From contig NC_083604.1 of assembly GCF_029168945.1 (NCBI RefSeq), forward strand, positions 41,225,686-41,289,685: a DNA stretch of 64,000 bases. Reading direction: 5' to 3'. The translations under genes and the position numbers were made by a program. Each line of letters opens with the position of its first letter. Within the stretch, counting starts at the first letter, position 1. Below, piece by piece: positions 8,863 to 63,439 of the stretch. The notes beneath the pieces were generated by a model that worked only from the letters and a program-made list of their open reading frames with translations, was not told where the DNA came from and did no database searches. Source of the stretch: Cannabis sativa (taxonomy: Eukaryota; Streptophyta; Magnoliopsida; Rosales; Cannabaceae).

Positions 8863-8876
8863 CCAAAGGGGGAGAT
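8863..8876 (+). other. Polypurine tract of SIRE element
   Basis: The purine-rich run CAAAGGGGGAGATT directly precedes the 3' LTR start at 8877. It is the expected plus-strand primer site. Confidence 0.85.
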
Positions 8877-10293
8877 TGTTAGGTCCTTTTTTGGCAATTT
8901 AGTTGTCAAAATATTTTTTAATTAATGTGTATTTTATTGAGCATTCAATTTGTTTTTATCAACTCTGGACCCTTTTTCCAGGGGGAGTTGTGGTTAGTAC
9001 TTGTGAACATATTTTTTTAAAAAAAAGTTACCTTGTTTTTGGTTTCTTTGCGATATTCGATTGTGTTACTCAGGGGGAGTAGTTATTTGCTCTTGCTAAC
9101 TTTATCTTGCAGGTACCTTATGTTAAAAATTATTTTGTTCATCTAAAGTGCTAAAGGGGGAGATTGTAAAGTCCTTTTTTGGCAAGTTAGTTGACAAAAT
9201 AATTTTTACATTTATGGTAAGATTATTGAGCATTGATATTCGGATTCTTACCTTATAAATTCGTATTGTAGTTGCTCTTTTCCTTGTTTGGAAAGTTGCA
9301 CTTTCAGCTGAACTTTTCTTTGTTGAAAACTTCTCAAAAGAGAAGGAATTCTCTTTTGGAAAGTTGTCTTTTTTAGGGAAACTTTGATTATTGCCTTTTC
9401 CTTATTGATTTCGATTGTATCTTGATACAATCAGAATATCTAATCTGTTTTTGGCAGGAATCAAGCATTGATAGAAGATCGGACCCGATTTTAGCAAGTT
9501 TCTCGATTCTGGTGTGATCTGCTGTGTCAGCATCCAATTCTGATGTAGCAGATCGTGTTTTCTTAGGAAAGTTTTTGTACAGCTGTAGATTCGAACTTGT
9601 GGTTGCCTCTTTGGTTTCTATGTTCTATAAATAGAGCCTAGAGAGCAACCATTCGAATCAGCTCTTCCATTATTCATTTTTTGCATTTATCCTTTTTGAG
9701 AGAAGAGTGTTTCTTTGTTTTGTGAGAGCCTAGATGTTCATCTAGGTTCTAGTTGTTCTATTTCTGTTCTTACTCTGTCCTAGAGGTTGTGAAGAACTAC
9801 TTGACTGAACAAGAGATTGGTCTTCGGGAGAAGACTTGGTAAAGCCTTACTTCGGGAGGAAGTAAGCACTTGGTCTTCGGGAGAAGACTTGTTGAAGCCT
9901 TACTTTGGGAGGAAGTAAGCACTCACACTTCAAAGACGAAGGGAGTTCGGGCTTGAAGGTGTTTCAAGAAGTCAGATTCATAAAGTGGATTACAAAGGAT
10001 TGCGGCAATACTTTAGAGGGAGTCTAAACTTGTTTAAGTCAATTGTCTTTGTAATTTTGATACTTTATTAATTGATTCCATTCTCTGGTTGTGGCCCCGT
10101 GGACTAGGAGTGTTCGTGAGAACACTGATACCACGTATAAATCTCTTGTGTCAAGTTATTTATTTTTCTGCAAATATTTTATATTCTGCCTATTCTGTTT
10201 TGCTGTAGCAGAATTACTTTCTGCTGCTGCAAACGCTTACAGTTTTTATATTTTCTTATATACAACTGACATTTGCAAAAACACGGTTTTTCA
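8877..10293 (+). repeat. 3' LTR of the SIRE-like element
   Basis: This aligns throughout with 849-2268, with scattered substitutions and a few small indels. It begins TGTTAGGTCC and ends TTTTTCA. It includes the duplicated internal PPT at about 9152-9165 and the four-hairpin array from 9820; one stem there has a C-to-T change that still allows a G:U pair. Confidence 0.92.
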
Positions 10294-14023: not shown

Positions 14024-15922
14024 TGTTGGAAATTATTTTACCAGGATCTTAGATCTACTCACAAGTATGTTGATTAACACCCTAAATATGAACTTCTAAA
14101 ACGATTATAAAATAAACACATATAAAGTATGAGAAACCTTACATTGGGTGCAGCGGAATAAAATATCTCCTTTCGTTCAGATCTCTAACCCTTGTATCCT
14201 TTCTGTCGCAGAGTATTATCAAGATCTGAACCTGGATCTCTTTCTCTCCTTTCTTTAGTGCTGAAACTCCTTCTTGTTGAATATATTTCTTCACGATCTT
14301 CCTCACTATGATTGAGGTATTACTTGCTGTGTGTGGGCACTACTCTAACACTAAGAGGTTCAAAATTATTCAAGGAAGAAGAAGAGTATGAAGGTGGCGG
14401 CTAGGGTTTAGAAAGAGAAGGCTCAGGTTTTTCTCTGAAGGAAACTAGAAGTAAAAGTGTATATTTCCTGAAGCCTTCAATATCTATTGATAGCATTCCA
14501 CATAGGGTTAGGTTTGAATTATTTGACATTAAAATAATGAAAATATCAGATGATAAAGCCTATAAAAGTGGCCGGCCATGGCTATGTGGATTTGGGCCTC
14601 ACTTTTTGTAATTTTGCAGTTTTATCATTTCCGCATCTCATTTTCTCAAAAACGCAAATTTTCAAATTCAACTATTTAAATGGCAATTCTAACTATTTAA
14701 TAATTATTAAATAATATTGTCATTTATCATATTTATTAATTGAACCATACAAAGTATCATAATTAACAAATATGCCCTAAAAACTCTTTCTTTACAATTT
14801 CGCCCTTACTTAGTGAAAAATTTACAAATAGATATAGTCTAATTTGAGAATTATTATTGATTAATCAAAACCAATTAAATGAGTCTTACAAGTAATATTG
14901 TCTCAACTAGTGGGGGGACTATGGGTCTATATAACCGAGCTTCTAATAAGCAGATCATGAATTTATAACCTAAATTCACTGACTTATTAATTCTTCGTTG
15001 AATCCACGCATAGAACTTAGAATTGCACTCTCAGTATATATAGAACGCTCTATATGTTCCACCATATAGACACGTCATTAGTTATCCATTGTTATAATCC
15101 TAATTTGATCAAAGATCCTCTATATGAATGATCTACACAGTAAAGGGATTAGATTACCGTAACACCCTACAACGTATTTTATCCTTAAAACACTTAACCC
15201 CGTATAAATGATATTTCAGCTATGTGAAATGAGTACTCCACCATTTATTTTCATTTGGTCAATCTCGAAGGAGATCATCCTTTACTTTTTATTTGCCAGA
15301 TAGAAGCTATAGATTCCATATTTATGTTAGCGCTCCCACTCAATTGCACTACCGTGTTCCTAAAATGTACGTATCACCCTGATCCAAAAGTAGGCTTAAC
15401 TAACAAATCAAAGAACACGAATAACACTCTTGAGATTGAGCCTAATCATATCAGGATTTAGATCATTTGATCTAGAATCAACTAGGTGATATTGACTTGA
15501 ATAGATATTACAATAAGTTTGATAAATCTATGTCAAAGTTCAATATCGGTCCCTTCCGATGCATACTCCATGCACCCAACCTGAGATTTACTTTAACCAA
15601 TGCTCTGGAAAGAACATAACATTTCTCCAAATGCAAGTAAACTCTGTTGTAGATTATCATATTAGTAAAACCCTGTGTTTGATAAATCTAGGAATCTTTA
15701 TTCACATAGTCATGTTTACTTTCCAATGTGTTGACAACACAATAAACAGGATCAAGTATGTAAAAAGGGTTTCAGATGAATTTATAAATCAAATAGACAA
15801 GCAATTGATAAGATGAACCAAAACATACACAAATGAATGAAAAATACTTCTGTTTCTTTATTGATGTTGAATAAAATGGATTACATTGAAATGGAGTTTT
15901 ATTTAGGGCATAAAACCCAACA
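14024..15922 (-). repeat. 5' LTR of copia element A (1899 bp)
   Basis: On the minus strand it starts TGTTGGGTTTTATGCCC and ends TTTCCAACA. It is a full-length reference for the related LTR pieces at 1-848/10294-10709, 41889-43561 and 48463-49261. The right flank is GCTTA (15923-15927), inside the RT of gypsy element F. Short ORFs at 15255-16064 on the plus strand are chance frames. Confidence 0.9.
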
Positions 15923-16217
15923 GCTTATTCGGGGTATAATCAAATCAAAATGCATCCACCAGACCAAGAACATACAAGTTTTCGAACAGATATGGGTTTG
16001 TATTGCTATAAGGTCATGTCATTTGGTCTCAAAAACGCTGGAGCTACATACCAAAGATTGGTAAATAAGATGTTTAAAGACCAGATCCTATGAAACATGG
16101 AACTGTACGTGGATGACATACTCGTCAAATCCAAGAAGGCTGGGGGGCACATAGATGACCTGGACGAATGCTTCAAAGTCCTTAGGAAGTATAACATGAA
16201 ACTCAATCCCTTAAATT
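15923..16217 (+). pseudogene. pol: F reverse transcriptase, catalytic part
   Basis: Translation gives the Tat-type RT core: YSGYNQIKM, then the SFGLKNAGATYQRLVNKMF segment and the catalytic YVDD at about 16108-16119, then YNMKLNPLK at the break. One in-frame TGA lies at about 16091. The left side is cut by copia A and the right side by element C. The coding sequence resumes at 34181. Confidence 0.88.
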
Positions 16218-16598
16218 TGTAACACCCTGGAATTTAGAAATGGATTAGCAAAACCCTAACTAGATAATTATGTATAATTGAGGAATTATATTATTATATA
16301 ATTTAATATATGTGAATTAATATGAATTTTAATATATTAAGACCCCGTTGGTGAGCCAGGGGCATTTTGGTAATTATGACCCGAGAAGGGTAAAATGATG
16401 AAATTAATTTAATTACGTGCTTAATGGAACTATATTATTATATAGTATGCATGTCTTGTCTTTTCAGGTGTGTTCTAACAGGTTGGCGCGGTATAGTCAC
16501 AATCGGGAATTTCGGGCCGAACTGGGTTTTATGCATGGAATGACAAAATTACCCTTGTGTGGGTGAGTATGTGTGTATTTAAGCCCTGGGAGAAAAAT
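16218..16598 (+). repeat. C 5' LTR, left piece
   Basis: This matches the first part of the 3' LTR at 31500. Compared with that LTR it lacks about 85 bp (present at about 31811-31895). The last five bases (AAAAT) are one copy of the Cassandra TSD. Confidence 0.9.
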
Positions 16599-17036
16599 TG
16601 TAACGTCCCCGCTTCAAGCCTCCATTGGGTCCTTACACCCACGAAATGAATGGCTCTTATACACGAGTACGTCACTCTGACTGCTTCCTGGATTGATGAC
16701 TGACCCTACAGACCAACACGAGTGTTTTCAGCGTACTTTGTCCTCACTCACACGCATCCTGGGAAAACTTCCCAGGAGGTCACCCCTCCTTGAAATTGCT
16801 CCAGGCCAAGCACGCTTAACTGTGGAGTTCTTTCGAGATGGGCTACCGAAAAACAAGATGCACCTTGTTGATATAGGTAGTACCAATCAATCCATTTAAG
16901 CTCTCTTCAATTGTGTAGTCCCATACCTACACAGTCTCAGAATCATCCCACATGACCTTCCCTAGGCGGTGTGGGATTGTACAGCTTACCCGGTATTTCC
17001 CCTAACGGATCACGGGACTACTGACTGTCACAATCA
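16599..17036 (-). repeat. Cassandra LTR a (minus, 438 bp)
   Basis: On the minus strand it starts TGATTGTGACAG and ends GGGGACGTTACA. The 5S-like segment is at 16766-16830. It is followed at 17037-17077 by a 41-bp remnant of the internal domain that has lost the primer site. Confidence 0.88.
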
Positions 17037-17077
17037 CCCCCCCTTACGGGGTCCGACGTCCTCGTCGACCACACATT

Positions 17078-17514
17078 TGTAACGTCCCCGCTTCAAGCCT
17101 CCATTGGGCCCTTACACCCACGAAATGAATGGCTCTTATACACGAGTACATCACTCTGGCTGCTTCATGGACTGATGACTGACCCTACAAACCAACACGA
17201 GTGTTTCCAGCGTGCTTTGTCCTCACTCACACGCATCCTGGGAAAACTTCCCAGGAGGTCACCCATCCTAAAATTGCTCCAGGTCAAGCACGCTTAACTG
17301 TGGAGTTCTTTCGTGATGGGCTACCGAAAAACAAGATGCACCTTGTTGACATAGGTAGTACCAATCAATCCATTTAATCTCTCTTCAACTGTGCAGTCCC
17401 ATACCTACACAGTCTCAGAATCATTCTACTTGACCTTCCCCAGGCGATGTGGGATTGCACAGCTTACCCGGTATTTCCCCTTACGGATCACGGGACTACT
17501 GACTGTCACAATCA
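17078..17514 (-). repeat. Cassandra LTR b (minus, 437 bp)
   Basis: It is a near copy of LTR a with the 5S-like segment at 17245-17307. The internal domain at 17515-17582 is full length (68 bp), but its primer site differs from the canonical Met site at two bases (minus strand TGGTATTCGAGC). Confidence 0.88.
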
Positions 17515-17582
17515 CCCCCCCTTACGGGGTCCGACGTCCTCGTCGACCACACTTCCGGCTGGGTCAAGGCTCGAATACCATT

Positions 17583-17667
17583 TGTAACGTCCCCAGGCAG
17601 TGTGGGATTGCACAGCTTACCCGGTATTTCCCCTAACGGATCACGTGACTACTGACTGTCACAATCA
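17583..17667 (-). repeat. Cassandra LTR c, internally deleted
   Basis: Only the first about 75 bases and the last about 12 bases of the LTR remain, joined at CCCC; the 5S-like segment is gone. It ends at the cluster centre, next to the D insertion. Confidence 0.82.
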
Positions 17668-17668
17668 C

Positions 17669-18857
17669 TGTTAGGCTATTTTTAGCCTATGTTTTGGATC
17701 CAATTTATGTGCATTTTTAGCTGTGTTGGGACGGAATTACGCCTGTTTTCTATGTTTTCAGGTTCTTTGGAGTAAAAGAGGTCTCGGGTGCAGAAATTCA
17801 TTAAAAGACGTGCTGAGCCGAAGAAAAACTTAATTTTTGAGTTTTTGCATATCTGGCCGCGGCGATGAAGAGGCTCGCCGCGGCGAGTTACGAGATACAG
17901 AGAGAGCCTAAATTTGGCAAATTCTTGCCGCGGCGAGAGGAAGCTTGGCCGCGGCGAGATCCCGTACGGACCAGGGGCATTTTCATCCATCGAACCCTAA
18001 ATTTCAATTATAAATAGAAAACTGCGATTGAAAGTCAGGGAGAGCGATTTGGAACCCTAAAACACAGCTGAGAGCGGCAGGAAGAGCATAGAGATTCAAG
18101 TGAAGATCCAGAATTCATCCACCAACAGTTCTTTTCTTTATTCCTCTTTAATTTATTTATGTTGAATATTGTCATAGGAATGGTTATGGATTTGTTTCTG
18201 AACTAAATTTCCCATTTAGGGAGGATGATGATTGTTGTTTAATGTTTTGCCTAGTTAATGTTTAATTACCATTCCTCAATTCTTGTTGTGAAATTATCTT
18301 AATTTGTGTTTAATTTCATGTTTAAGATTGATCACCTTGTGCATGCTCTATGATCTCAATTCGAAATCTGAAAAGTGAGAATTGAGAATGCTAGAATTAA
18401 GATAATCAATGTTCTATGTGAAACGAAAGTATTTGCATGACTTATGTGACGAGTAGATTATTACTTAATGCTGATTTCATGTTAGTTTAATTAAGGAATT
18501 AATTAGATAATATGTGATTTAGAATCTAGAAGATCTGAAAGGAGCTAGGTTATTTCATAATCTGTCATTCACTCCAAGAATAGGATAGTAATTAAGCATT
18601 AACGATTTGGGTAAACAACAACAGGATTCTCCTCCCTATTGTCTCATCTTGCTCAACTTTCAATTGTGTTATTAAGTTTTCTGAATTTCTTTCATATTTT
18701 ACTGTTTTTAAATCATAATTGCTTTCGATTTGCCGAATAGAATCATAAGTATAATTTAGTGGTACTTAATCCAATTCCCTGTGGGATCGACCTCACCTGT
18801 GTGAGATTTACTACTTGATTGCGTATACTTGCGTAGCGTTTATAGAATATAGCAACA
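17669..18857 (+). repeat. D 5' LTR (1189 bp)
   Basis: It starts TGTTAGGC and ends AGCAACA. Four GCCGCGGC palindromes lie at about 17854-17960, about 50 bp upstream of a TATA box (TATAAATAG, 18009-18017). The long minus-strand ORF at 17682-17990 is a chance frame repeated in the other LTR. Confidence 0.93.
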
Positions 18858-18863
18858 AGTTTT

Positions 18864-18879
18864 TGGCGCCGTTGCCGGG
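18864..18879 (+). other. D primer binding site
   Basis: TGGCGCCGTTGCCGGG follows the LTR after six bases. This site is characteristic of Athila-group elements. Confidence 0.88.
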
Positions 18880-20787
18880 TTTTATAGAAGATTTATCAAA
18901 GATTTTTCCAAAGTGGCCAAACCGCTATCCAAGCTTCTTGCTAGTGGAGTACCTTTTGAATTTGGGAAAGATTGTCTTGAAGCATTCCAAATTCTCAAGG
19001 AGAAGTTAATCTCAGCACCGATTGTGACTACACCAAACTGGGAATTACCTTTTGAAATCATGTGCGATGCAAGTGATTATGCTATTGGAGCAGTCTTGGG
19101 ACAACGGGTTGACAAGGTATTCAGAACCATTTATTATGCAAGCAAAACCTTGAATGATGCCCAACTAAACTACGCTACTACAGAAAAAGAGATGCTGGCC
19201 ATAGTGTTTGCATGTGACAAATTTCGACCCTACTTAATTGGTAATAAAGTGATAGTGTATACAGATCATTCAGCAATCAAATACTTGATGACTAAGAAGG
19301 ATGCCAAACCACGACTGATTCGATGGGTTCTTCTTTTGCAAGAATTTGATCTAGACATAAAAGACAAGAAGGGTACTGAGAACTTGGTGGCAGATCACTT
19401 GTCAAGACTAGAACTGGAAGAAAGTCAGAATACGAAAGAGGTACAAATAAATGAACAATTTCCCGATGAACAACTCTTTAGTGTGAGGGAAAGTCTGATG
19501 GTACCATGGTATGCTGATTATCTTAACTTCTTGGCTGCCAATATCACTCCTCCTGAGCTATCTCGACAACAACTAAAGAAGTTCTTTTCTGAGGTGAAAC
19601 ATTACTATTGGGAAGAGCCAATCCTCTACAAGCACTGTGCAGATCAGATAATAAGAAGGTGTGTGCCTGAAGAGGAGATGTACTCTATTCTTAATCACTG
19701 TCATGCTTTACCATGTGGGGGACACTTCAGTGGAACTAGAACAAATTGCCAAGGTGTTGCAAAGTGGATTCTTTTGGCCAACACTTTTCAAAGACGCTAG
19801 TACTTTTGTGAAGGCATGTGATCGTTGTCAGCGTACAGGAAACATCTCAAGGAGAAACGAAATGCCTTTGACAGGAATCTTGGAAGTAGAGTTGTTTGAT
19901 GTATGGGGGATAGACTTTATGGGTCCTTTTCCTTCATCGTTTAGCAATCTATACATTTTACTAGCTGTGGATTACGTATCAAAATGGGTAGAAGCTGCAG
20001 CAACACCAACTAATGATGGAAAAACAGTTCTTCGGTTCCTTCAGAAGAATATATTCACACGGTTTGGTACTCCCCGAGCGATCATAAGCGATGAAGGGAG
20101 TCATTTCTGCAACAAACAGTTCGAAGCACTCCTTTCAAAGTATGGTGTTCGTCATCGAACTGCCCTCCCCTATCATCCGCAAAGTAATGGCCAAGCTGAG
20201 ATTTCTAACCGGGAAATAAAGATGATTCTGGAGAAAACGGTGCAAAGATCAAGGAAAGATTGGTCAAGAAAGTTGGATGACGCATTGTGGGCTTATAGAA
20301 CAGCGTTCAAGACGCCAATCGGGATGTCACCATATCGGTTGGTGTTTGGAAAGGCTTGTCATCTACCGGTGGAGCTAGAACACAAGGCGTATTGGGCAAT
20401 GAAAACTTTGAACATGGATTTAAAAGCCGCCGGCGTAAAAGACTACTACAGTTGGATGAGTTGGAAGAATTTCGAAATGAAGCTTATGAAAACGCCAAGA
20501 TTTACAAGGAAAGAACTAAGAGATGGCATGACAGAAATCTAGTCAGAAAGGAGTTTCAACCTGGTCAACAAGTTCTACTCTTTAACTCAAGACTAAAGTT
20601 GTTTCCTGGTAAATTAAAATCAAGGTGGTCAGGGCCATTTACAGTGGTCAAGGTGTTTCCCTACGGAGCAGTGGAACTAAAAGGTGAAAGTCCTAATACT
20701 TTCAAAGTGAATGGACAGCGATTAAAGCTCTACTTGGGAGGTCAATTTGATCAAACCAAGTCCGCCATGATTCTGGCGCCACTTTGA
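18880..20787 (+). pseudogene. pol: D pol remnant: RT end, RNase H, integrase
   Basis: Coding sequence starts within two bases of the primer site ([16 protein letters not shown]), so the deletion joins leader to the end of RT. RNase H follows ([49 protein letters not shown]). The integrase has an H/C zinc finger ([16 protein letters not shown]) and the D-D-E residues in [15 protein letters not shown] and NGQAEISN. The C-terminal domain ends at TGA 20785-20787. A one-base frameshift lies near 19745 and another near 20435, so three frames (18913-19800, to 20542, then to 20787) are used. The product could not be made intact. Confidence 0.9.
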
Positions 20788-20923
20788 AGATCTCGATCAA
20801 CGTCTAGCTAAGGACGATAAAGTTAGCGCTAATTGGGAGGCAACCCAGGTGTTCTTTTGATTTAGTTGAACTCTTTTTAAGTTTACTGTTATTTTTCTTG
20901 ATGATCATTCTGTTTCGTTACTG

Positions 20924-20957
<34 letters not shown>

Positions 20958-21711
20958 GATCAGTGGCCGCGGCCATGGGATGTCTGGCCGCGGCCAGAAT
21001 GTCCTTACAGAAAGTCCTTGTTTTTGGCGATTTCTAGCCGCGGCGAGGGTATACACCGCCGCGGCCAGAATGGACTTACAGAATGGGGCTTATTTTCACG
21101 GATTCTCGCCGCGGCGAGGCTACAGGTCGCCGCGGCGAGATTGGTCAGTTTTTCCTTTTTAAATCCCAAATCCCTAACATTTCAAATCAAACCCCACATT
21201 CAAACCCTCTCTTCTCCACGCCGAAAACAACCCTTTTCACCATTTTTTCTTCATCTAATCCCATTCAAACTCCTTTTCATCAAATCTAACCATAAACTTT
21301 CATCAACAATCATCCTAAACCCTTATTTCTCTCATTAAACACTATTTCCCACTCAAAATCAACCCCAAATCCCTAAAACCTCACCCAAAATATTAAAAAA
21401 ACCTTATTCATCCTTTTCTTTCTCAAAAGCTTCAAGATGTCAACAATGGAGGATGATTAAAGGAACATTGTCATTGAGGTATTAATTCTAAGACTTCCAC
21501 TCCAATTTTTATTGAAGAATTTGTGAATTTGTTGGATAGTTTTGGATTATTTGGTGGATATTTGGGATTTTTGCTATATACATTGTTAAAATTGATTGTG
21601 TGAATAGAATTGGGTTAGATTGAAGGGGATTTAAATCCCGGGAAGTCAATTTTTAAGGGGAAGTGCTGTCAAAATTTTGAAAAATCTTGAAAGTTAGAAA
21701 AATTTGATGCT
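20788..21711 (+). other. D spacer with poly(A) run and GCCGCGGC array
   Basis: There is no gene. A 30-base A run lies at about 20923-20953. A second set of GCCGCGGC palindromes lies at 20963-21142, followed by a weak TATA-like TTTTTAAAT (about 21153) and a CT-rich leader. This mimics the order array-TATA-leader in the LTR and may promote the following ORF; that is inference. Confidence 0.6.
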
Positions 21712-22884
21712 ATGGGTCCAAAGAGGTCAAGGGTTAATGAAGAGGGAGCTTCATCATCCAACCCATCTAGGGGACGCGCTAATCTTGATAGAGTTAGGTT
21801 TACCAACATGGAGGCTCAAGAGCGGTTTTTGAAATTGAAAGATAGGGCATTCATTGAAGATAGAGGGATAGACATTGTCAACCTAAGCCAAACTGCCAAC
21901 ATTCCCCCTGCTTTTGCATCTATTAGGGATCAAATCCTACAGAGGCAGTGGACTAAGTTCGTAGATGTCACTGAGCGTGGTAATCAAACTCTAGCTTTGG
22001 AATTTTTAGCCAACTGGCCTGAAAGAGACGAGGGCAAAGTTAGAGTTAGGGGGGTTAGAGTGCCTGCTACCACAGCCGCTATTCATGCCCTTTATGACCT
22101 ACAAACTTTCACTAATGAAGAACAACCCTTGAAACGACAATTTTATGAGAGAAGTACGAATTATGTGGATATTGCTGAGACTCTAGGGTATCCTGGCCTT
22201 AGGTTCCATGAGCTTAATGGAGAACCATACCAATTGTACCGATGTGAACTCAACCCAGTGGCCAAGGCTTGGCTTTACTTTGTGAGTGCAAGGATGCTCC
22301 CCAACAAGCATTTTTCTGATGCTCAAATGGACAGACTTAAATGGGTTTACGGCATTATGAAAGGGTATAATTTGAATGTGGGGGATATTGTTCGAACGAC
22401 CTTTGACATTATGGTTGAGGGATCTTCCGGTGGAGGACTGGGGTTGGCTGGAATAATCACTGACCTATGTGAGAAACATGGAGTACCACAGTACTCATAT
22501 GATACAAAGGCACCGCCCCAGCGCCCTATTAACTTGGCGACTGTTCTTCGTTTCAAACCTCCTCATCCTCATGGTCAACCGCCAGTTCAAAGAGGTCCTC
22601 CGGCAAGAGAAGAAGAGGAACATGAGGACATCGAACCACCGCGTCTTGTCGGGCCTCTTGACCCTGCCATGCAGTACACTCACAATCAGCTGAATTATCT
22701 GATTCAGCAGAACATGCATATGCAAAATTACATGGCCCAGAGGAGTATCTTCGATGAGCAGCAGGTGGCTCAATTGAACACACTTGTCACGAGGATGAAT
22801 ATCGGTGTGGATGATCCAAACTATTTTCCCATGCCACCCCGTTTCAACCCTTATGACCAGCCACCGCCGCCAAACCCCTTCTAA
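21712..22884 (+). CDS. Athila-type downstream ORF (putative plant transposon protein domain)
   Basis: An intact 390-residue frame starts at ATG 21712. Residues about 30-270 resemble the domain found in Athila ORFs downstream of pol: a motif like ERF-LKLKDRAFIEDRGID, then VRVRGVRVPATTAAIHALYDL, an aromatic LNPVAKAWLYFVSARMLPN stretch, then GLGLAGIITDLCEKHGV. The C-terminus (about 285-390) is proline-rich and acidic, with a glutamine/methionine-rich helix. Such ORFs are sometimes called env-like, but I see no convincing signal peptide or membrane anchor, so function is unknown. It is the only unbroken ORF in D. Expression would need splicing or an internal promoter. Confidence 0.75.
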   Translation: MGPKRSRVNEEGASSSNPSRGRANLDRVRFTNMEAQERFLKLKDRAFIEDRGIDIVNLSQTANIPPAFASIRDQILQRQWTKFVDVTERGNQTLALEFLANWPERDEGKVRVRGVRVPATTAAIHALYDLQTFTNEEQPLKRQFYERSTNYVDIAETLGYPGLRFHELNGEPYQLYRCELNPVAKAWLYFVSARMLPNKHFSDAQMDRLKWVYGIMKGYNLNVGDIVRTTFDIMVEGSSGGGLGLAGIITDLCEKHGVPQYSYDTKAPPQRPINLATVLRFKPPHPHGQPPVQRGPPAREEEEHEDIEPPRLVGPLDPAMQYTHNQLNYLIQQNMHMQNYMAQRSIFDEQQVAQLNTLVTRMNIGVDDPNYFPMPPRFNPYDQPPPPNPF

Positions 22885-24117
22885 GGGGCTCAGGTAAGTT
22901 TCTCTCACCCTGGTTTATTTTCACACATTGGGGACAATGTGCATTTTAGTTTGGGGGGGGGACTTAATTTATTTTTTTTCGCGTTTATTTGTTTTAGTTT
23001 TTTTTTAGTCTTGCGTGATAGCTAAATTGAAAGATGGATTGAATTGTTGTTATTTACTTGTGCAATGGATTGAAACATAACTGTGTGCTTGACTTGCAAC
23101 TGTTTGAATTAAATTGGATGTGTGCTAGGAAGTGATTCATGTAGATTTAAAACATTGGCTATTCTCACATATCACTTTTGTTCTATTTGGATTGTGGAAT
23201 GACTGATTGAACATGGAATAGAATTTGTTTGACATACTCTCTTGAAGCGGAATCCTTGATGATTTTTGTTTGGAAAGTGATTTAGGCAAGTTTTCTTTGG
23301 AACGATTGAGCCTTTCAAGCCTACCTAAAAAAGTTTTATCCTTAGTATACCCAAAGTTGAGCTTTAGCCTGTTTTAAAAATTTTTTCACCACTTCACGGA
23401 GCTGAATTCGTTATTCTAAACTCTTTTCACCCTGAACATATTTTATTATGCCATGAGCCTTGAAGCAAGTTTGGGGGGGAATAAGTGCTGTAAGTGAAAA
23501 AATATAAAGTGTAGGAATGAGAGATTGAAAAAAATAATAAGAATATTGTGTGTTGTGCCTATTAAAAAAAAAAAAGAAAAAATGTGTCTTCTTGAAGAAA
23601 AAAAGTTAAGAAAATTATGAGGTACACACACAAGAAAAATTGCAATCTCTTATTTCTGTTTTTGGGATATATGGAAAGAAAGCAAAATAAATGTCTAGGC
23701 TTGCTTGGTTAATAGTGCTTATGGTATAGTATAGCCTAAATGACTTCTCACCTACCCATGTACCTAAGCCATGTGATTTTAACCGAAAAAGACCTATTGA
23801 TTCCAGATAGAAATTTGTCAACATTAGTGGAGAGAGGTATGTCATTCAAACTTATTGATCATGTGTTAGTGGGATGTTGGAAAGTTAGAACAGTTGTGAT
23901 GTTGATGGAAATTGCGATGCTTTATGTTTGTATGAATTACTTACTTGTAAATTGCACATTCAACTTAGTTCTTAGAGTTGGCAAGTTGAAATTCTGGTTA
24001 TTGATGGATTGAAGTTGTGCAGGTGGTGGTAACAATTTAATTGTTGGAAAGTTCAGCTATCATTGTCAGTTTTTTCTTAGTTTAGTCTTAGTTTACTCGG
24101 GGACGAGTAAAGAGTCA
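22885..24117 (+). other. D 3' untranslated region
   Basis: This AT-rich region has no credible gene. It has several polypurine-like G runs after TTT (about 22953-22961 and 23471-23477) before the true PPT. The small ORFs here are chance frames. Confidence 0.7.
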
Positions 24118-24130
24118 GTTTGGGGGAGTT
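24118..24130 (+). other. D polypurine tract
   Basis: A GTTTGGGGGAGTT run lies directly before the 3' LTR start at 24131. Confidence 0.8.
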
Positions 24131-25320
24131 TGTTAGGCTATTTTTAGCCTATGTTTTGGATCCAATTTATGTGCATTTTTAGCTGTGTTGGGACGGAATT
24201 ACGCTTGTTTTCTATGTTTTCAGGTTCTTTGGAGTAAAAGAGGTCTCGGGTGCAGAAATTCATTAAAAGACGTGCTGAGCCGAAGAAAAACTTAATTTTT
24301 GAGTTTTTGCATATCTGGCCGCGGCGATGAAGAGGCTCGCCGCGGCGAGTTACGAGATACAGAGAGAGCCTAAATTTGGCAAATTCTCGCCGCGGCGAGA
24401 GGAAGCTTGGCCGCGGCGAGATCCCGTACGGACCAGGGGCATTTTCGTCCATCGAACCCTAAATTTCAATTATAAATAGAAAACTGGGATTGAAAGTCAG
24501 GGAGAGCGATTTGGAACCCTAAAACACAGCTGAGAGCGGCAGGAAGAGCATAGAGATTCAAGTGAAGATCCAAAATTCATCCACCAACAGTTCTTTTCTT
24601 TATTCCTCTTTAATTTATTTATGTTGAATATTGTCATAGGAATGGTTATGGATTTGTTTCTGAACTAAATTTCCCATTTAGGGAGGATGATGATTGTTGT
24701 TTAATGTTTTGCCTAGTTAATGTTTAATTACCATTCCTCAATTCTTGTTTGTGAAATTATCTTAATTTGTGTTTAATTTCATGTTTAAGATTGATCACCT
24801 TGTGCATGCTCTATGATCTCAATTCGAAATCTGAAAAGTGAGAATTGAGAATGCTAGAATTAAGATAATCAATGTTCTATGTGAAACGAAAGTATTTGCA
24901 TGACTTATGTGACGAGTAGATTATTACTTAATGCTGATTTCATGTTAGTTTAATTAAGGAATTAATTAGATAATATGTGATTTAGAATCTAGAAGATCTG
25001 AAAGGAGCTAGGTTATTTCATAATATGTCATTCACTCCAAGAATAGGATAGTAATTAAGCATTAACGATTTGGGTAAACAACAACAGGATTCTCCTCCCT
25101 ATTGTCTCATCTTGCTCAACTTTCAATTGTGTTATTAAGTTTTCTGAATTTCTTTCATATTTTACTGTTTTTAAATCATAATTGCTTTCGATTTGCCGAA
25201 TAGAATCATAAGTATAATTTAGTGGTACTTAATCCAATTCCCTGTGGGATCGACCTCACCTGTGTGAGATTTACTACTTGATTGCGTATACTTGCGTAGC
25301 GTTTATAGAATATAGCAACA
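24131..25320 (+). repeat. D 3' LTR (1190 bp)
   Basis: It is almost identical to 17669-18857, with the palindrome array at about 24317-24423. It is followed immediately by the TSD ATCAC. Confidence 0.93.
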
Positions 25321-25325
25321 ATCAC

Positions 25326-25750
25326 CCAGTAGTCCCGTGATCCGTAAGGGGAAATACCAGGTAAGCTGTGCAATCCCACATCGCCTGGGGAAGGTCAAGT
25401 GGGATGATTCTGAGACTGTGTAGGTATGGGACTGCACAGTTGAAGAGAGATTAAATGGATTGATTGGTACTACCTATGTCAACAAGGTGCATCTTGTTTT
25501 TCGGTAGCCCATCACGAAAGAACTCTACAGTTAAGCGTGCTTGACCTGGAGCAATTTAAGGATGGGTGACCTCCTGGGAAGTTTTCCCAAGATGCGTGTG
25601 AGTGAGGACAAAGCACGCTGGAAACACTCGTGTTGGTCTGTAGGGTCAGTCATTAGTCCATGAAGCAGCCAGAGTGATGTACTCGTGTATAAGAGCCATT
25701 CATTCCGTGGGTGTAAGGGCCCAATGGAGGCTTGAAGTGGGGACGTTATA
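25326..25750 (+). repeat. Cassandra LTR d (plus, lacks first bases)
   Basis: It starts at about LTR base 14, adjoining the inverted arm at the cluster centre. The 5S-like segment is at 25519-25582. It ends GTTATA instead of GTTACA. Confidence 0.87.
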
Positions 25751-25817
25751 AATGGTATCAGAGCCTTGACCCAGCCGGAAGTGTGGTCGACGAGGACGTC
25801 GGACCCCGTAAGGGGGG
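25751..25817 (+). other. Cassandra internal domain with intact PBS and PPT
   Basis: The whole internal domain is 67 bp: primer site TGGTATCAGAGCC at 25753-25765 and a purine tract AAGGGGGG at 25810-25817, just before the next LTR. This size and content define a TRIM. Confidence 0.88.
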
Positions 25818-26255
25818 TGATTATGACAGTCAGTAGTCCCGTGATCCGTTAGGGGAAATACCGGGTAAGCTGTGCAATCCCACACCGCCTGGGGAAGGTC
25901 AAGTGGGATGATTCTGAGACTGTGTAGGTATGGGACTACACAGTTGAAGAGAGCTTAAATGGATTGATTGGTACTACCTATATCAACAAGGTGCATCTTG
26001 TTTTTCGGTAGCCCATCTCGAAAGAACTCCACAATTAAGTGTGCTTGGCCTGGAGCAATTTCAAGGATGGGTGACCTCCTGGGAAGTTTTCCCAGGATGC
26101 GTGTGAGTGAGGACAAAGTACGCTGAAAACACTCGTGTTGGTCTGTAGGGTCAGTCATCAATCCAGGAAGCAGTCAGAGTGACGTACTCGTGTATAAGAG
26201 CCATTCATTCCGTGGGTGTAAGGACCCAATGGAGGCTTGAAGCGGGGACGTTACA
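25818..26255 (+). repeat. Cassandra LTR e (plus, 438 bp)
   Basis: It begins TGATTATGACAG and ends GGGGACGTTACA. The 5S-like segment at 26023-26088 keeps long matches to plant 5S rRNA (for example GGATGGGTGACCTCCTGGGA). Confidence 0.9.
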
Positions 26256-28050
<1,795 letters not shown>

Positions 28051-31499: not shown

Positions 31500-34180
<2,681 letters not shown>

Positions 34181-35334
34181 AAATTGCTCCTTTGGAGTCA
34201 GCTCAGGTAAGTTTCTAGGCTTTATCGTCAACGCCCGAGGAATTGAAGCCAATCCAGAGAAGATTCAAGCCCTCCTGGATATGAAATCGCCAACAAGAAC
34301 CAAGGAAGTTCAAAGTTTGACTGGTCGGATTTCCGCACTAAGAAGATTTGTTTCAAAATCAACAGACAAGTGTGTTCCATTCTTCAACATCCTGCGAGGA
34401 AATAAACAATTTAAGTGGACGGAGGAATGTGAAAAAGCTTTTATAGAGCTAAAAATGCAACTCGCAAAACCTCATGTACTCTCAAAACCTCTATACAGAG
34501 AAGAACTTGGGATGTACCTGGCTATCGAAGAGCATGCTGTAAGTGCCGTGTTGATCAGAGAGCAAAACAACATTCAACATCTGATCTATTACATCAGTAA
34601 AAGACTCATTGAGGCTGAAGGCCGATATCCATTGATAGAGAAACTCACTTACTACCTGATTCTAGCAACAAGAAAGCTAATACCCAACTTTCAAGCTCAC
34701 CCTGTTCGGGTATACACTGACCAACCGTTACGCCAAATATTGAAAAAACGGGATGCCTCTGGATGGTCACTCAAATGGGAATTGGAGTTGGGCCAATATG
34801 AGATTGTCTTCCAACCCTGAACAACAATCAAGGGCCAGGCCTTAGCAGACTTTGTAGTAGAATGCACGGGAAAGGAAGAAAGCGTATCAGAAAATAACCC
34901 CGAGCCAGAACAAATACCTCAGTCAAGTAACAGTGAATACAAGCCGACTTGGAAACTACATGTGGACGGTCGTCTACAAATTTACTATCCGGTGCAGGAA
35001 TCACCCTTGTCACACCTGGGGGCAACACCTGCACGCTGTAGTCAAATTTGGATTTAAGGCATCCAATAATGAGGCTGAATATGAAGCTTTGATTGCCGGT
35101 CTAAAACTAGCCCGGGAGATGAAGGTCGAACATATTGAGATTTACAATGATTCATAGCTGGTGGTAAATCATGTATTTGGGGAATACGAGGCTCGGGGGG
35201 AACAGATGATAGCATATCTGAGCCATATACACAATCTGCTCGCACAGTTCAAAAGCTATGCTCTCAGGTGAATTCTAAGGGAAGAAAACACGACTGGTGA
35301 CGCATTGGCTCAGCTTGCGAGTAATAATGTAAAT
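34181..35334 (+). pseudogene. pol: F RT end and two RNase H regions
   Basis: The first five bases are the C TSD. The RT then continues (KFLGFIVNARGIEANPEKI, then PTRTKEVQSLTGRI). The first RNase H (YLAIEEHAVSAVLIRE, YISKRLIEAEGRYP) runs to a TGA at about 34818. A second RNase H follows with several lesions (WKLHVDG at about 34951, ASNNEAEYEALIAGLKLAREM at about 35060, a TAG at 35155, a TGA near 35270). Two RNase H domains are characteristic of Tat/Ogre-type gypsy elements. The copy is inactive. Confidence 0.88.
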
Positions 35335-44583: not shown

Positions 44584-44999
44584 TGTAATATAAAGTGTAC
44601 ATTTACATATAATATATCACATCATTTCTTTAGTTGTAGTATCATTCCTTAGCTCAACAGTATATTCTCTTTGGCACTGATAATTTATACATAAAAATTC
44701 GATGACTCATGCAAGGAATATGAACGAAACGAATTATTTAACATATAATTAAGATTAATTGTGCTCACCACACACACACAACACAACAATGAACAGCTCT
44801 TACAATGCAAGATGGTGTTTTTTTTCCTCTGAAGGAATAGGATTCCTCTTATTAGTCTTACCATTTAATTATGTATAATAAATTATAGACCAATTAGCTA
44901 TAAAAAAATGAAAAAGGAAAAGAAAAAGTCAAGAAGAACAACATATAAAATTAAGCATTTACTATGGTTTGCTACTCAGGCGAGCACTCATCATCATTC
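44584..44999 (+). promoter_or_regulatory. Proximal promoter of the F-box/kelch gene
   Basis: A TATA box TATAAAA lies at 44944-44950. A start about 30 bases downstream would fall after the ATG at 44964 and before the ATG at 45000, which favours the second ATG. A CA repeat lies at about 44770-44785. Confidence 0.5.
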
Positions 45000-46145
45000 A
45001 TGGCTTCCGGCAAAGACAAAAAACAAAGCCAGCAGCCGGAGTTAGCGGCTGATATTCTTATCCCATCCCTTACAAACGACGTCGCTTTAAACTGCCTCGC
45101 ACGAGTACCAAGATGGCATCACATCATTCTTTCCCAGGTCTCTAGACCCATCAGGTCCCTTCTTTTCTCCCATCAATTCTACACCGCACGATCAATTCTC
45201 AACTGCACCCATGATCTTCTTTACATAAGGGTCGGATCCTACTCTGCCTGGCCCGCCACATGGTTCTATATCCAGCAGAAACCCGACCCCAGTTTAACCC
45301 GGAATGGTGCTCTTATCCGAGTCCCGCAACAACCTCTTCATATAGAATCTTCCGCCTACGCTGCCGTAGGCTACAAGATCTACGTCCTCGGCGGCTTCGT
45401 CGACGGAGAATTCTCCTCCCACGTGTGGATTCTCGACTGTAGGTTCCACACGTGGGAGCGCGGGCCGAACATGAAAATGGCTAGGTGTGGCGCCTCGGCT
45501 GCGGTTTTGGGCGGTAAAATATACGTGGCGGGAGGAGGTGGTGGGCCAAGCTCATCACACGGAGGTACCCATTGGGTTGAATCGTTCGACCCAGATATCG
45601 GAGTCTGGGAAGCCGTTCCTTGTCCTGATGGGGTTCGAAACAAGTGGGTCTCGGACTGCGCCATTGTGGGTGGCGGGGTTTGCATTTGGGTGGGCCAAAC
45701 CGGGTTCAAATTTGACCCGAAAACGAATGTTTGGGAAGCCTTTGAGAATGAGCTGCAGTCGGGTTGGAATGGACAGAATTGTGTGGTGAATGGTGTTTTG
45801 TATTGCTATGACAGTTGTGGGAGGTTCAAAGGGTTCGATGAAGTGAATGGGAGGTGGAAAGAGGTTAATGGGGTTGTTAAAGATTTGCCTGCGTACATGA
45901 GTGGAGCTAGGATGGTGAGCTTGGAAGGAAAGTTGGTTGTGGTTTGGGGTGAGAGTGATTTAAATGGGGTTTTTGAGCATTTTCAAAAGAAGAGAATGGA
46001 GTTACAGTGGGCTGAAATTGAAGTGAAGAAAGATGGGAATGGTGATTTTTGGGGAAAAGTTTATTGGTGGGGAAATATTGAAATTCCGGATTGGATTTTA
46101 GGGAGATGTCCCTTGTTCTACCATTGCCTTTCTGTATCAATTTGA
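44964..46145 (+). CDS. F-box/kelch-repeat protein (SKIP6-like)
   Basis: An intact single-exon gene of 393 residues; from the second ATG (45000) it would be 381. The N-terminal F-box is at residues about 33-75 (LIPSLTNDVALNCLARVPR, then LSQVSRPIRSLLFS, YTARSIL). Kelch repeats follow from about residue 130 (AVGYKIYVLGGF, AAVLGGKIYVAGGGG, WVESFDPDIGVWEAV), consistent with a beta-propeller. F-box/kelch proteins are substrate receptors of SCF ubiquitin ligases in cytosol or nucleus: the F-box binds a SKP1-type adaptor and the propeller binds the target. The target cannot be predicted. The coding region is GC-richer than its surroundings and undamaged, so this is probably a functional host gene, isolated between two transposon nests. 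The assignment near plant SKIP6 is by motif resemblance only. Confidence 0.9.
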   Translation: MVCYSGEHSSSFMASGKDKKQSQQPELAADILIPSLTNDVALNCLARVPRWHHIILSQVSRPIRSLLFSHQFYTARSILNCTHDLLYIRVGSYSAWPATWFYIQQKPDPSLTRNGALIRVPQQPLHIESSAYAAVGYKIYVLGGFVDGEFSSHVWILDCRFHTWERGPNMKMARCGASAAVLGGKIYVAGGGGGPSSSHGGTHWVESFDPDIGVWEAVPCPDGVRNKWVSDCAIVGGGVCIWVGQTGFKFDPKTNVWEAFENELQSGWNGQNCVVNGVLYCYDSCGRFKGFDEVNGRWKEVNGVVKDLPAYMSGARMVSLEGKLVVVWGESDLNGVFEHFQKKRMELQWAEIEVKKDGNGDFWGKVYWWGNIEIPDWILGRCPLFYHCLSVSI

Positions 46146-51877: not shown

Positions 51878-52745
51878 TGTTGTTGAGTGAATTTCGCAAC
51901 ACCAAAATGTATTATTTAATTAATATAAAAGAGAATTTTTAGGGAAGTGACAAGTGCGAGTATTCGACCTAGAATGGCGAGTACTCGACTGGGAATGCAA
52001 GAACAAACAACAAGGCTGGAAAATGTAAATAAGACAAAGAATTATAGTGGTTCAGCCAGATTGTGATCTGCTTAGTCCACTGTAGCAAAGGATTCGTAGG
52101 TGCCATTTTCATGGTGGATCACCCCTTTATATACAAAGTAGGTGTCCAATCGGTTACACAAGGATCACATTCATTGTTAATCCATTATTTACATATTGAA
52201 TTGCAATAAGTAAACCCAAACAACGTTAACATCAATAAATGCGTAACAGTTACTAAGTTCATCAACGTATGCGTTTTCCGCATCTGCGAGTTGACTGTTC
52301 ATGTTCCGTTTGTTGAGCTCCCAGGGTCATCAGTACGTTTGGAACGTCTGCGCCCTTAGGTAATCGCCCCTTGTATACATCGCATGTTTGAGCTGGTAGA
52401 ACTTGGACATGCGAATTTATATCGGCTTGTCAGGGCTATTGGATCATTGGGACCAAATTGCATCATAGAGAGTTGGTCTCTATGCTTTTCGCGGAAATAT
52501 AGAGGGGACACTCGCACATGTTCTGACACATGCGAGTTGGATCTACCCTGCATAACGAGAATTATGGTTACGTGGTTCGACTTAGGTCGCACTCGCAATA
52601 TCTCGCTGGTTTTATCCTGAGCGAGGTCTAAACTTCGAGAAGTCTCTCACGGACATTTTAGCTTTCATTGGAAGTCTGAACACACGTGTCCTTTAAAGAG
52701 GAGTCTGGTCTCGAGTTTCTAGGTGAGAGAAATCTCACTATAACA
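51878..52745 (-). repeat. G 3' LTR
   Basis: In element orientation it starts TGTTATAGTGAG and ends CAACAACA. Its minus-strand polypurine tract (AACTAGGGGCATG) is at 52746-52758. The small frames in it are repeated in the other LTR and are not genes. Confidence 0.93.
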
Positions 52746-53198
52746 CATGCCCCTAGTTTCGCGACGTGACAGGAGCGGTCACTGAGGGAAACTATTATTC
52801 GAGAGACAGGTGAAAGGTTGTCACGAGGAGGTGACCTTTTGGTTGTCCCATCGAGGGTTTCGAAAAATGACGGCTGTAATTATTAGTAATTATTACCTTT
52901 ATGGTGCCACGTCACAAAACCCTTCGGTTTTCGTGTAGGCGTGGCCATCGTTGGCCGTTAGATTGGGCGACCTTAGGCATTCTGGCTGCCACGTGTCACA
53001 ATCCCAATTAATAAGGGATATGGGTATTTAAATACTTTGATACGAATCAAAATTCCCATTTTTCCCTCTTACTCTTAACTTCTTCTTTCCCTCCATTACA
53101 TACACTTCAAAAATCCACTCCCAGATTTTCTACCATTTTTCCACAACATTCTCAATCTCAGAAGTGATCGAGAGCAATCGCAGAAGTCAGAACTAAAG
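52746..53198 (+). promoter_or_regulatory. Promoter and first exon of the G aORF
   Basis: ACGT elements lie at about 52912 (CCACGTCA) and 52990-52995 (G-box CACGTG), then a TATA-like TATTTAAATA at 53024-53033. A CT-rich leader leads to a splice donor at 53199. Element F has the same order for its aORF. Transcription is inferred. Confidence 0.6.
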
Positions 53199-54003
53199 GT
53201 TAGTTTTCAAATCACTGCACTTTCGTTTGTTGTTTTGGAGAAAATATGCTTTCCTTTCTGGGTTCGGGTATTTTAAAGGTTTTTTTAGGAATGTATGCTA
53301 GTGGGTGTTAATGAGGCTATGTGTTTTAGGTAAGAAAACCTGGGTAAATTCGTAGGATATGACCTGTAAACTGACATAACCGCACACAATTCATAGGCAC
53401 TGTTCCACGTCTTGAATACTCGCGGATATTCGGATGAACAACTTGAATGTTCGCGGGTGTTCAGATGAACAGCTTGAATACTCGCATATTGCTAAGATTT
53501 ATTTCCATTTGACTGTTAGCTAGATCTTTTAGGATTTTTATATGTCGCGGGCTGAGTTGCGAGGGTGTTAATCGCTATTCCAAATGGTGGGTGTGTCACA
53601 GTATTCTAATGGCCATATACGCGGTTATATGCCCCTTGAGATACTGAGATACACCCAGCCATTTGCGACATGCGTTAATATTCGAATGAGCGTACTCTTT
53701 GGTTGATAGGTAGTCTCGGAACGGTGGGGGTCTCCCAGTAACTTCAGGATTATGCTCGAAAATGCATACCCCTTGAGTCACTGGGAAACTCCCAGCCATT
53801 TCTGGAGGTATACCGCTTAGCCGAGGATGCGTGAATTACTTGCCCAAGATAGTTTTATCTCTTCTCGCACATTGATGGGATGGTCAGTATTCGCAAGGAG
53901 GCTGACCATTCTGTCGAGTGCGACTTTATAATCTACTGCGGGTGAGATCACTCACTTTGTTTTTCACACATCCATCACACTGAAAAGATCTTCTATCTTT
54001 CAG
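53199..54003 (+). other. 5' UTR intron of the G aORF (805 bp)
   Basis: Donor AAG|GTTAGT at 53199 and acceptor CTATCTTTCAG at 54003, which abuts the ATG at 54004. No long ORF is present in the intron. Confidence 0.65.
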
Positions 54004-56120: not shown

Positions 56121-56510
56121 TTATCCTTATGTTGTTTTTTAATTTTACTTCTATCTTTTTTTTTATATATGCGGTACAAGGGTACTCGCGCTTATGTACT
56201 TGGATGAATTTACTTTTTGTTTTGGACAAATTTCTATCCTCGCGGGGATAGCTATCCTTTAACATTTACGCAGTACACGGGTACTCGCGTTTTTATATAT
56301 ATATATATTTGCGACTCCAATTACAGCTTGGTGTAATAAGTAGGAACATTTGCAAAGCTGGTAAAATTTTTGAAATTTAACAAGTAATTTTATTCATATA
56401 ATCAATAGTACATTCGGGCATATATCCCCCTATACTTAGGATTTTTCCTTGTTGAATGAAAAATATCTAAGTATAAGTACAAGAATGAACATAATCGAAT
56501 AATGCGAATA
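56121..56510. other. Tail-to-tail spacer in G
   Basis: Holds the 3' ends of two convergent transcription units. Two similar motifs (GGTACAAGGGTACTCGCG-like) occur at about 56171 and 56271. No gene is present. Confidence 0.55.
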
Positions 56511-62507: not shown

Positions 62508-62551
62508 GATGAAATAGTGTTCTTTGAAGTGAATGAAATCTTTTAGTCGAA

Positions 62552-62569
62552 TTCCCACAGACGGCGCCA
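62552..62569 (-). other. G primer binding site
   Basis: On the minus strand TGGCGCCGTCTGTGGGAA lies two bases inside the 5' LTR (62572). It begins TGG as required for pairing to a tRNA CCA end; I have not assigned the tRNA. Confidence 0.85.
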
Positions 62570-62571
62570 AA

Positions 62572-63439
62572 TGTTGTCGAGTGAATTTCGCAACACCGAA
62601 ATGTATTATTTAATTAATATAAAAGAGAATTTTCAGGGAAGTGACAAGTGCGAGTATCCGACCTAGAATGGCGAGTACTCGACTGGGAATGCAAGAACAA
62701 ACAACAAGGCTGGAAAATGTAAATAAGACAAAGAATTATAGTGGTTCAGTCAGATTGTGATCTGCTTAGTCCACTGTAGCAAAGGATTCGTAGGTGCCAT
62801 TTTCATGGTGGATCACCCCTTTATATACAAAGTAGGTGTCCAATCGGTTACACAAGGATCACATTCATTGTTAATCCATTATTTACATATTGAATTGCAA
62901 TAAGTAAACCCAAACAACGTTAACATCAATAAATGCGTAACAGTTACTAAGTTCATCAACGTATGCGTTTTCCGCATCTGCGAGTTGACTGTTCATGTTC
63001 CGTTTGTTGAGCTCCCAGGGTCATCAGTACGTTTGGAACGTCTGCGCCCTTAGGTAATCGCCCCTTGTATACATCGCATGTTTAAGCTGGTAGAACTTGG
63101 ACATGGGAATTTATATCGGCTTGTCAGGGCTATTGGATCATTGGGACCAAATTGCATCATAGAGAGTTGGTCTCTATGCTTTTCGCGGAAATATAGAGGG
63201 GACACTCGCACATGTTCTGACACATGCGAGTTGGATCTACCCTGCATAACGAGAATTATGGTTACGTGGTTCGACTTAGGTCGCACTCGCAATATCTCGC
63301 TGGTTTTATCCTGAGCGAGGTCTAAACTTCGAGAAGTCTCTCACGGACATTTCAGCTTTCATTGGAAGTTTGAACACACGTGTCCTTTAAAGAGGAGTCT
63401 GGTCTCGAGTTTCTAGGTGAGAGAAATCTCACTATAACA
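62572..63439 (-). repeat. G 5' LTR
   Basis: It is the near-identical partner of 51878-52745, followed by the TSD ATATG. Confidence 0.93.

What the first reader, a model, noticed from the sequence alone, without database searches (positions are those of the whole stretch)
16599..26255. Cassandra TRIM inserted as a head-to-head inverted dimer with one shared TSD
Seen: five Cassandra LTRs, three in one orientation and two in the other, with the same LTR end (GTTACA) facing outward at both borders and a perfect AAAAT duplication outside. The centre reads as near-palindrome (GGATCAC...GTGATCC). Normal LTR elements are direct repeats and use one U3 end and one U5 end; here both integrated ends are U5 ends. 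Inference: the cDNA was rearranged (autointegration or intermolecular strand transfer) before integration, or a tandem copy was inverted afterwards. A route for TRIM integration through two U5 ends would be new.
Basis: partly seen in the sequence, partly recalled or inferred. Interest (0 to 1): 0.85.

Follow-up and report, generated by a model that had tools for sequence, protein, structure and literature searches.

The report
Mirror-image double plant jumping gene
A small plant retrotransposon (Cassandra) appears to have entered the chromosome as two copies joined back-to-back, with the same end of the element facing outward on both sides; a comparable back-to-back double insertion of another small retrotransposon has been printed for maize, so this is a well-resolved unusual case rather than a new kind of thing.

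Summary
Two Cassandra arms face each other U3 to U3: left arm (- strand) L1, L2 and an 81-bp remnant L3; right arm (+ strand) L4, L5. Both borders are U5 ends flanked by an exact 5-bp AAAAT duplication. New here: (1) the insertion lies in the 5' LTR of a resident gypsy-type element whose 3' LTR keeps the empty site with one AAAAT. (2) LTR differences are mirror-symmetric: 14 sites pair L1=L5 against L2=L4, 1 is arm-wise, 0 translational, against two unrelated monomer insertions. (3) The centre is split by a later 7.65-kb element (TSD ATCAC). (4) The old centre is not made of mature U3 ends: left arm overshoots by 6 nt, right lacks 9 nt, against simple autointegration and for end-joining or snap-back of cDNA before integrase used two U5 ends. 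Divergences (host LTRs 3.6%, arms 2.3%, nested LTRs 0.5%) fit this order, host versus arms only weakly. Gao et al. 2016 print a maize array 'with two inverted TRIMs' and a TSD: new member of a known kind. No second copy could be sought; the genome search did not complete.

The parts
16594..16598 (.). left copy of the 5-bp target duplication AAAAT
16599..17032 (-). Cassandra LTR L1 (outer type); its U5 end is the left border
   Evidence: boxA 16810-16821
17033..17077 (-). internal region between L2 and L1; 26-27 bp including the primer binding site missing relative to the other two internal regions
   Evidence: alignment
17078..17510 (-). Cassandra LTR L2 (middle type), weak 5S-like match over the whole model
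17511..17582 (-). internal region with primer binding site variant TGGTATTCGAGC (17569-17580) and purine tract
17583..17663 (-). L3, 81-bp LTR remnant, outer type at the 2 diagnostic sites it retains
   Evidence: inspection
17664..17668 (.). left TSD (ATCAC) of the nested element; also native sequence on the purine-tract side of L3, so the left arm overshoots its U3 start
17669..25320 (+). later nested LTR retroelement, gypsy type (LTRs 17669-18857 and 24131-25320; 6 differences in 1190 aligned sites); RNase H and integrase ORFs found, no gag, protease or RT match in the ORFs scanned
25321..25325 (.). right TSD (ATCAC) of the nested element
25327..25750 (+). Cassandra LTR L4 (middle type), first 9 bp of U3 missing
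25751..25821 (+). internal region: primer binding site TGGTATCAGAGC 25753-25764 and purine tract
25822..26255 (+). Cassandra LTR L5 (outer type); its U5 end is the right border
26256..26260 (.). right copy of the target duplication AAAAT
31955..31959 (.). single AAAAT in the uninterrupted sister LTR (paralogous empty site, shown within 31950-31968)
31500..34180 (+). 3' LTR of the host gypsy-type element; its 5' LTR starts at 16218 and holds the dimer; host TSD AAATT 16213-16217 and 34181-34185

Best explanation
A multi-LTR Cassandra transcript was reverse transcribed with help in trans from an autonomous element (inferred; general for TRIMs). Before integration two cDNA ends lying close to purine-tract/U3 starts were joined head to head by end joining: one end overshot the U3 start by 6 nt, the other lay 9 nt inside the U3 start of a middle-type LTR. 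This left a molecule with two intact U5 ends, and integrase inserted both in concert into the 5' LTR of a resident gypsy-type element, making a 5-bp AAAAT duplication. Later the left arm lost most of L3 and one primer binding site, and another gypsy-type element inserted at the palindrome centre. Shown: one integration site, U5 ends at both borders, mirror LTR pairing, order of divergences (host versus arms weak). Inferred: that joining preceded integration, that two cDNAs were joined rather than one snapping back, and why the U3 ends were defective.
For: Exact 5-bp TSD and U5 ends at both borders. The sister LTR of the same host element keeps the uninterrupted site with one AAAAT, and the host element has its own TSD AAATT. 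Mirror pattern 14 sites against 1 arm-wise and 0 translational, gap-free columns of a 434-column alignment; mirror preferred in 1000 of 1000 site bootstraps. L3 is outer-type at 2 of 2 retained diagnostic sites, as one cycle of reverse transcription predicts for outer LTRs; similarity of outer LTRs plus a flanking TSD is the criterion of Sabot & Schulman 2007 (PMC1950507, passages). Divergence: host 66/1828, arms 20/861, nested 6/1190, LTR pairs within an arm 45/861; Fisher p 0.079 host vs arms, 0.0004 arms vs nested, 0.002 within-arm vs arms (counts). Both joined ends lie within 10 bp of a U3 start, chance about 0.04 each under uniform breakpoints. [quoted passage not shown] HIV-1 integrase/LEDGF binds two U5 duplexes in vitro (PMC3623958, passages), and the legend of a concerted assay shows one viral DNA oligonucleotide (PMC11054761).
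Against: No second case could be sought: the genome search did not complete on 11 of 11 tries and no plant genome was searched. One of 15 informative sites groups L1 with L2, which mirror descent does not predict. Only 2 diagnostic sites remain in L3. The U3 start (TGTGAC) is assigned from sequence, with no copy here whose U3 end borders a TSD; if it were TGATTGTGAC, the overshoot would be 2 nt and the loss 13 nt. The two U3-near breakpoints are not independent if one strand folded back. Host-versus-arms difference is not significant at 0.05. The right arm has one LTR fewer, so a truncated or internally primed cDNA must be assumed. The joint shares only 1 bp, which fits many routes. PMC11054761 says that integration in infection requires both U3 and U5 ends. 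In Arabidopsis EVD lines a read-pair search found no opposed LTR pairs, within limits of insert size (PMC11624286, passage).
Confidence: 0.58

Rival explanations
1. Snap-back cDNA: the 3' end of one minus-strand cDNA folded back, primed on the middle LTR of the same strand and copied it outward, giving one hairpin-derived palindrome with two U5 ends that integrase then used.
For: The left arm's + strand has minus-strand cDNA polarity, runs L1-L2-L3 and then 6 nt into the purine-tract side; the right arm is a mirror copy of L2-L1; arms near-identical. Explains one extra LTR on the left as the loop.
Against: No inverted microhomology for priming is seen at the turn; one C is shared (inspection output, no formal test). 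A hairpin must be opened before two U5 ends are free duplex ends.
Confidence: 0.16
2. Post-integration rearrangement: an ordinary minus-strand Cassandra array with TSD AAAAT suffered a break, and repair copied the left half in reverse, returning at the terminal ACA shared by the U5 and U3 ends.
For: U5 and U3 ends share ACA, and with the first A of each flank ACAA, a possible return point (sequence; reasoning). Genomic inverted duplication of a transposon is in the literature (Slotkin et al. 2005, seen only as cited in PMC11624286, passages).
Against: Needs two template switches, the second returning exactly at the element/TSD border. L3 running past its U3 start means the original array must have been longer still.
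Confidence: 0.17
3. Two independent Cassandra insertions in opposite orientation side by side.
For: Cassandra elements in arrays are widespread (PMC7215508, passages).
Against: Mirror pattern 14:1:0; single TSD with paralogous empty site.
Confidence: 0.02
4. Assembly artefact: wrong join inside the long inverted repeat or the nested element.
For: Long inverted repeats and a nested repeat are hard to assemble; no reads were available.
Against: Both flanks match adjacent positions of one sister LTR, and the three insertion levels each have exact 5-bp TSDs. A wrong join would not be expected to make the AAAAT duplication.
Confidence: 0.05

Closest known systems
Tandemly arrayed TRIM 'with two inverted TRIMs', maize Zma-SMART (AC220956:117725-118283, TSD CTTCA), Gao et al. 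2016 PMC4717578
   Same: Small non-autonomous LTR elements in inverted arrangement with one TSD; 559 bp is about twice the 280-bp monomer of the same legend, by its coordinates.
   Different: Different TRIM family; outward ends, LTR genealogy and joint are not given in the text seen; arms there look like monomers by size, here multi-LTR.
Cassandra tandem arrays, Kalendar et al. 2020 PMC7215508
   Same: 5S-like LTRs, short internal region, several LTRs per array.
   Different: Described as tandem arrays; the passages under 'inverted' concern inverted primers and PCR.
Three-LTR complexes by template switching, Sabot & Schulman 2007 PMC1950507
   Same: One TSD, outer LTRs alike, an extra inner LTR.
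   Different: No mention of inversion: 0 occurrences of invert, inversion, antisense or opposite.
Aberrant HIV integrations with one defective end, PMC5041404
   Same: One end inserted by integrase; the aberrant end, often truncated, joined to additional viral DNA in either orientation or to host DNA.
   Different: Host duplications there are usually much larger than 5 bp; a head-to-head dimer with two clean integrase-made ends is not described in the passages seen.

Membership tests
Cassandra TRIM | 5S-like sequence with Pol III boxA and boxC in each LTR | tested here: met
   5S_rRNA model aligned over positions 1-120 on the LTR sense strand in L4 and L2 (20.1 and 21.2 bits, E 0.25 and 0.15, below the gathering score 38); no match listed for L1 or L5 at E up to 1. 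Of the four near-complete LTRs, exact boxA consensus in 3 of 4 (not L5), exact boxC in 3 of 4 (not L1); the L3 remnant lacks the region. Consensi from PMC7215508.
Cassandra TRIM | very short non-coding internal region between primer binding site and purine tract | tested here: met
   45, 72 and 71 bp; primer binding site TGGTATCAGAGC at 25753, a variant at 17569, missing in the 45-bp one. That this site pairs with initiator Met tRNA is recalled.
Cassandra TRIM | sequence similarity to published Cassandra copies | not testable with these tools
   No plant collection; one exact-pattern scan of viral contigs gave 0.
Integrase-made LTR element insertion | 5-bp TSD next to TG...CA ends | tested here: met
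   AAAAT/AAAAT, TGTAAC...GTTACA, empty site in sister LTR.
Integrase-made LTR element insertion | one U3 and one U5 end at the borders | tested here: not met
   Both borders are U5 ends.
Tandemly arrayed TRIM, inverted form (Gao et al. 2016) | inverted TRIM units within one TSD | tested here: met
   compared with the legend only, no sequence comparison.
Simple autointegration product | mature U3 terminus joined at the centre | tested here: not met
   Left arm overshoots 6 nt, right arm lacks 9 nt, given TGTGAC as U3 start.

The most novel reading that the evidence does not exclude
Cassandra and other TRIMs have a recurrent by-pass route: cDNAs with defective purine-tract/U3 ends are joined head to head, and the two U5 ends serve as a full integrase substrate, seeding genomic inverted repeats that can make hairpin RNA and trigger silencing of the family.
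Probability: 0.25. Interest if true: 0.65.

Novelty: new member of a known kind. Interest (0 to 1): 0.42.

Why it matters
It is a base-level record of an LTR-element insertion with two U5 ends, in which the empty site and the central joint can both be read and the steps put in order. Such dimers place inverted repeats of a 5S-bearing LTR in the genome, a possible source of hairpin RNA for silencing (inference). The signature (outward U5 ends, one TSD, mirror LTR pairing) can be searched for in plant genomes to see whether the route recurs.

Tried and rejected
Rejected: two independent insertions (mirror pattern 14:1:0, single TSD). Rejected in simple form: autointegration (no mature U3 end at the centre). 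Rejected by reasoning: inversion by recombination between opposite LTRs inside a normal element, since the outer parts of the outer LTRs stay in place and the borders could not become two U5 ends. Led nowhere: Rfam at the gathering threshold on the window, 0 hits; tRNA scan, 0; viral contigs pattern, 0; paper search for TRIM with 'inverted orientation', 0; last paper search, 8 listed, none on inverted dimers by title or abstract start. 'Maiwald et al. 2021', cited in PMC10853983 for tandem Cassandras, is not in the listings and was not read. One search printed the right-hand TSD windows one base off; one search gives the right ones. Host LTR divergence (four pieces) leaves out the CT microsatellite and a 79-bp indel region.

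Full report
What is there. The stretch 16594-26260 holds two Cassandra arms in mirror orientation. Left arm, - strand: L1 16599-17032, internal 17033-17077, L2 17078-17510, internal 17511-17582, L3 remnant 17583-17663. Right arm, + strand: L4 25327-25750, internal 25751-25821, L5 25822-26255. L1, L2 and L3 start with TGTGAC at U3 and L5 with TATGAC; L4 lacks the first 9 bases. U5 ends read GACGTTACA (GACGTTATA in L4). Both outer borders are U5 ends. The flanks carry AAAAT at 16594-16598 and 26256-26260, identical over 5 and not over 6 bases.

Identity. The LTR carries a degenerate 5S gene on its sense strand: the Rfam 5S model aligns over positions 1-120 in L4 (20.1 bits, E 0.25) and L2 (21.2 bits, E 0.15), both below the gathering score of 38; L1 and L5 gave no listed match at E up to 1, and at the gathering score the window has none. 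The boxA and boxC consensi printed in PMC7215508 each occur exactly in 3 of the 4 near-complete LTRs. Internal regions are 45, 72 and 71 bp with a purine tract and, in two of three, a primer binding site. This is Cassandra by structure; similarity to published copies could not be tested. The plant is probably Cannabis or near it: a nested-element protein gave 12 hits, all 12 named Cannabis sativa, best 88% identity.

One integration site. The arms lie in the 5' LTR of a gypsy-type element (LTR start 16218; 3' LTR 31500-34180; TSD AAATT on both sides; protease, RT and a sub-threshold integrase match by Pfam; the gypsy label rests on recalled domain order). Its 3' LTR reads straight through the site with one AAAAT (31955-31959). 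This paralogous empty site shows that both flanks were adjacent and that AAAAT was duplicated.

Mirror genealogy. In the alignment of L1, L2, L4, L5 (434 columns), 14 sites pair L1 with L5 and L2 with L4, 1 pairs by arm, 0 by translation; 1000 of 1000 site bootstraps favour the mirror. L3 agrees with the outer type at both diagnostic sites it retains. Outer LTRs alike and an inner LTR different is what one round of reverse transcription of a three-LTR template would give; Sabot & Schulman 2007 used flanking TSDs and alike outer LTRs as their test (passages). Arms differ at 20 of 861 sites, LTRs within an arm at 45 of 861, host LTRs at 66 of 1828, nested-element LTRs at 6 of 1190. Fisher p: arms vs nested 0.0004, within-arm vs arms 0.002, host vs arms 0.079. 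So the order host, dimer, nested element fits, with the first step weakly supported.

The centre. A 7.65-kb element (17669-25320, TSD ATCAC) now splits it. With its two flanks set side by side the joint reads ...GACTGTCACAATCACC/CAGTAGTCCC.... The left arm goes 6 nt past its U3 start into the purine-tract side; the right arm starts 9 nt inside the U3 of a middle-type LTR; one C is shared. Neither side is a mature end, taking TGTGAC as the U3 start (assigned from sequence; with TGATTGTGAC the figures would be 2 and 13). Both lie within 10 bp of a U3 start, where plus-strand DNA begins, about 0.04 chance each under uniform breakpoints, not independent if one strand folded back.

Mechanism. I favour head-to-head joining of two cDNA ends before integration, with integrase then using the two U5 ends. 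In HIV, aberrant ends were often truncated and could be joined to additional viral DNA in either orientation (PMC5041404, passage). HIV-1 integrase/LEDGF binds two U5 duplexes in vitro (PMC3623958, passages), though in infection both U3 and U5 ends are said to be required (PMC11054761). Snap-back of one cDNA and repair-driven inversion after integration remain open. Against my reading: one arm-wise site, a right arm shorter by one LTR, a read-pair search in Arabidopsis EVD lines that found no opposed LTR pairs (PMC11624286), and no second case, because the genome search tool did not answer in 11 tries.

Precedent and novelty. Gao et al. 2016 (PMC4717578; section 8 and its legend read; passages) list a maize TRIM array with two inverted TRIMs and TSD CTTCA, among structures validated by PCR and sequencing; its 559 bp is about twice the monomer. 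Kalendar et al. 2020 describe Cassandra tandem arrays and name recombination and template switching as sources (passages). In the listings of the ten paper searches answered and the passages opened from ten papers I saw no U5/U5 Cassandra dimer; the library holds open-licence papers only, and most listed papers were not opened. Hence: new member of a known kind, with unusually complete local evidence.

Noticed in passing
17664-25326: The nested element's TSD ends 1 bp from the palindrome's central joint, perhaps because a cruciform attracts integration or because split palindromes are more stable.
   Followed up: partly
18858-20787: The nested element's coding part starts at the RNase H region; no gag, protease or RT match in the three ORFs scanned, yet its LTRs differ at only 6 of 1190 sites. 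A 390-aa ORF with a plant transposon domain (PF20167) lies downstream at 21712-22884.
   Followed up: partly
17033-17077: The left-arm internal region lacks 26-27 bp with the primer binding site, while the mirror copy in the right arm keeps it.
   Followed up: yes
about 26331-26650 and 32034-32410: Long CT microsatellite inside both host LTRs (approximate ends).
   Followed up: no
51878-63439: Retroelement with 99.0% LTRs (868 aligned bp) and a 2019-aa polyprotein ORF on the - strand, while ORFs with Transposase_28 and ANG-1-like matches lie on the + strand (54004-54930, 55266-56120; the second below its cut-off).
   Followed up: partly
1-847 and 14483-15330: Inverted copies at 81% identity enclosing a copia-type element (LTR-like repeats 845-2268 and 8873-10293, 97%).
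   Followed up: no
44964-46145: 393-aa ORF with F-box and Kelch matches among the retroelements.
   Followed up: partly
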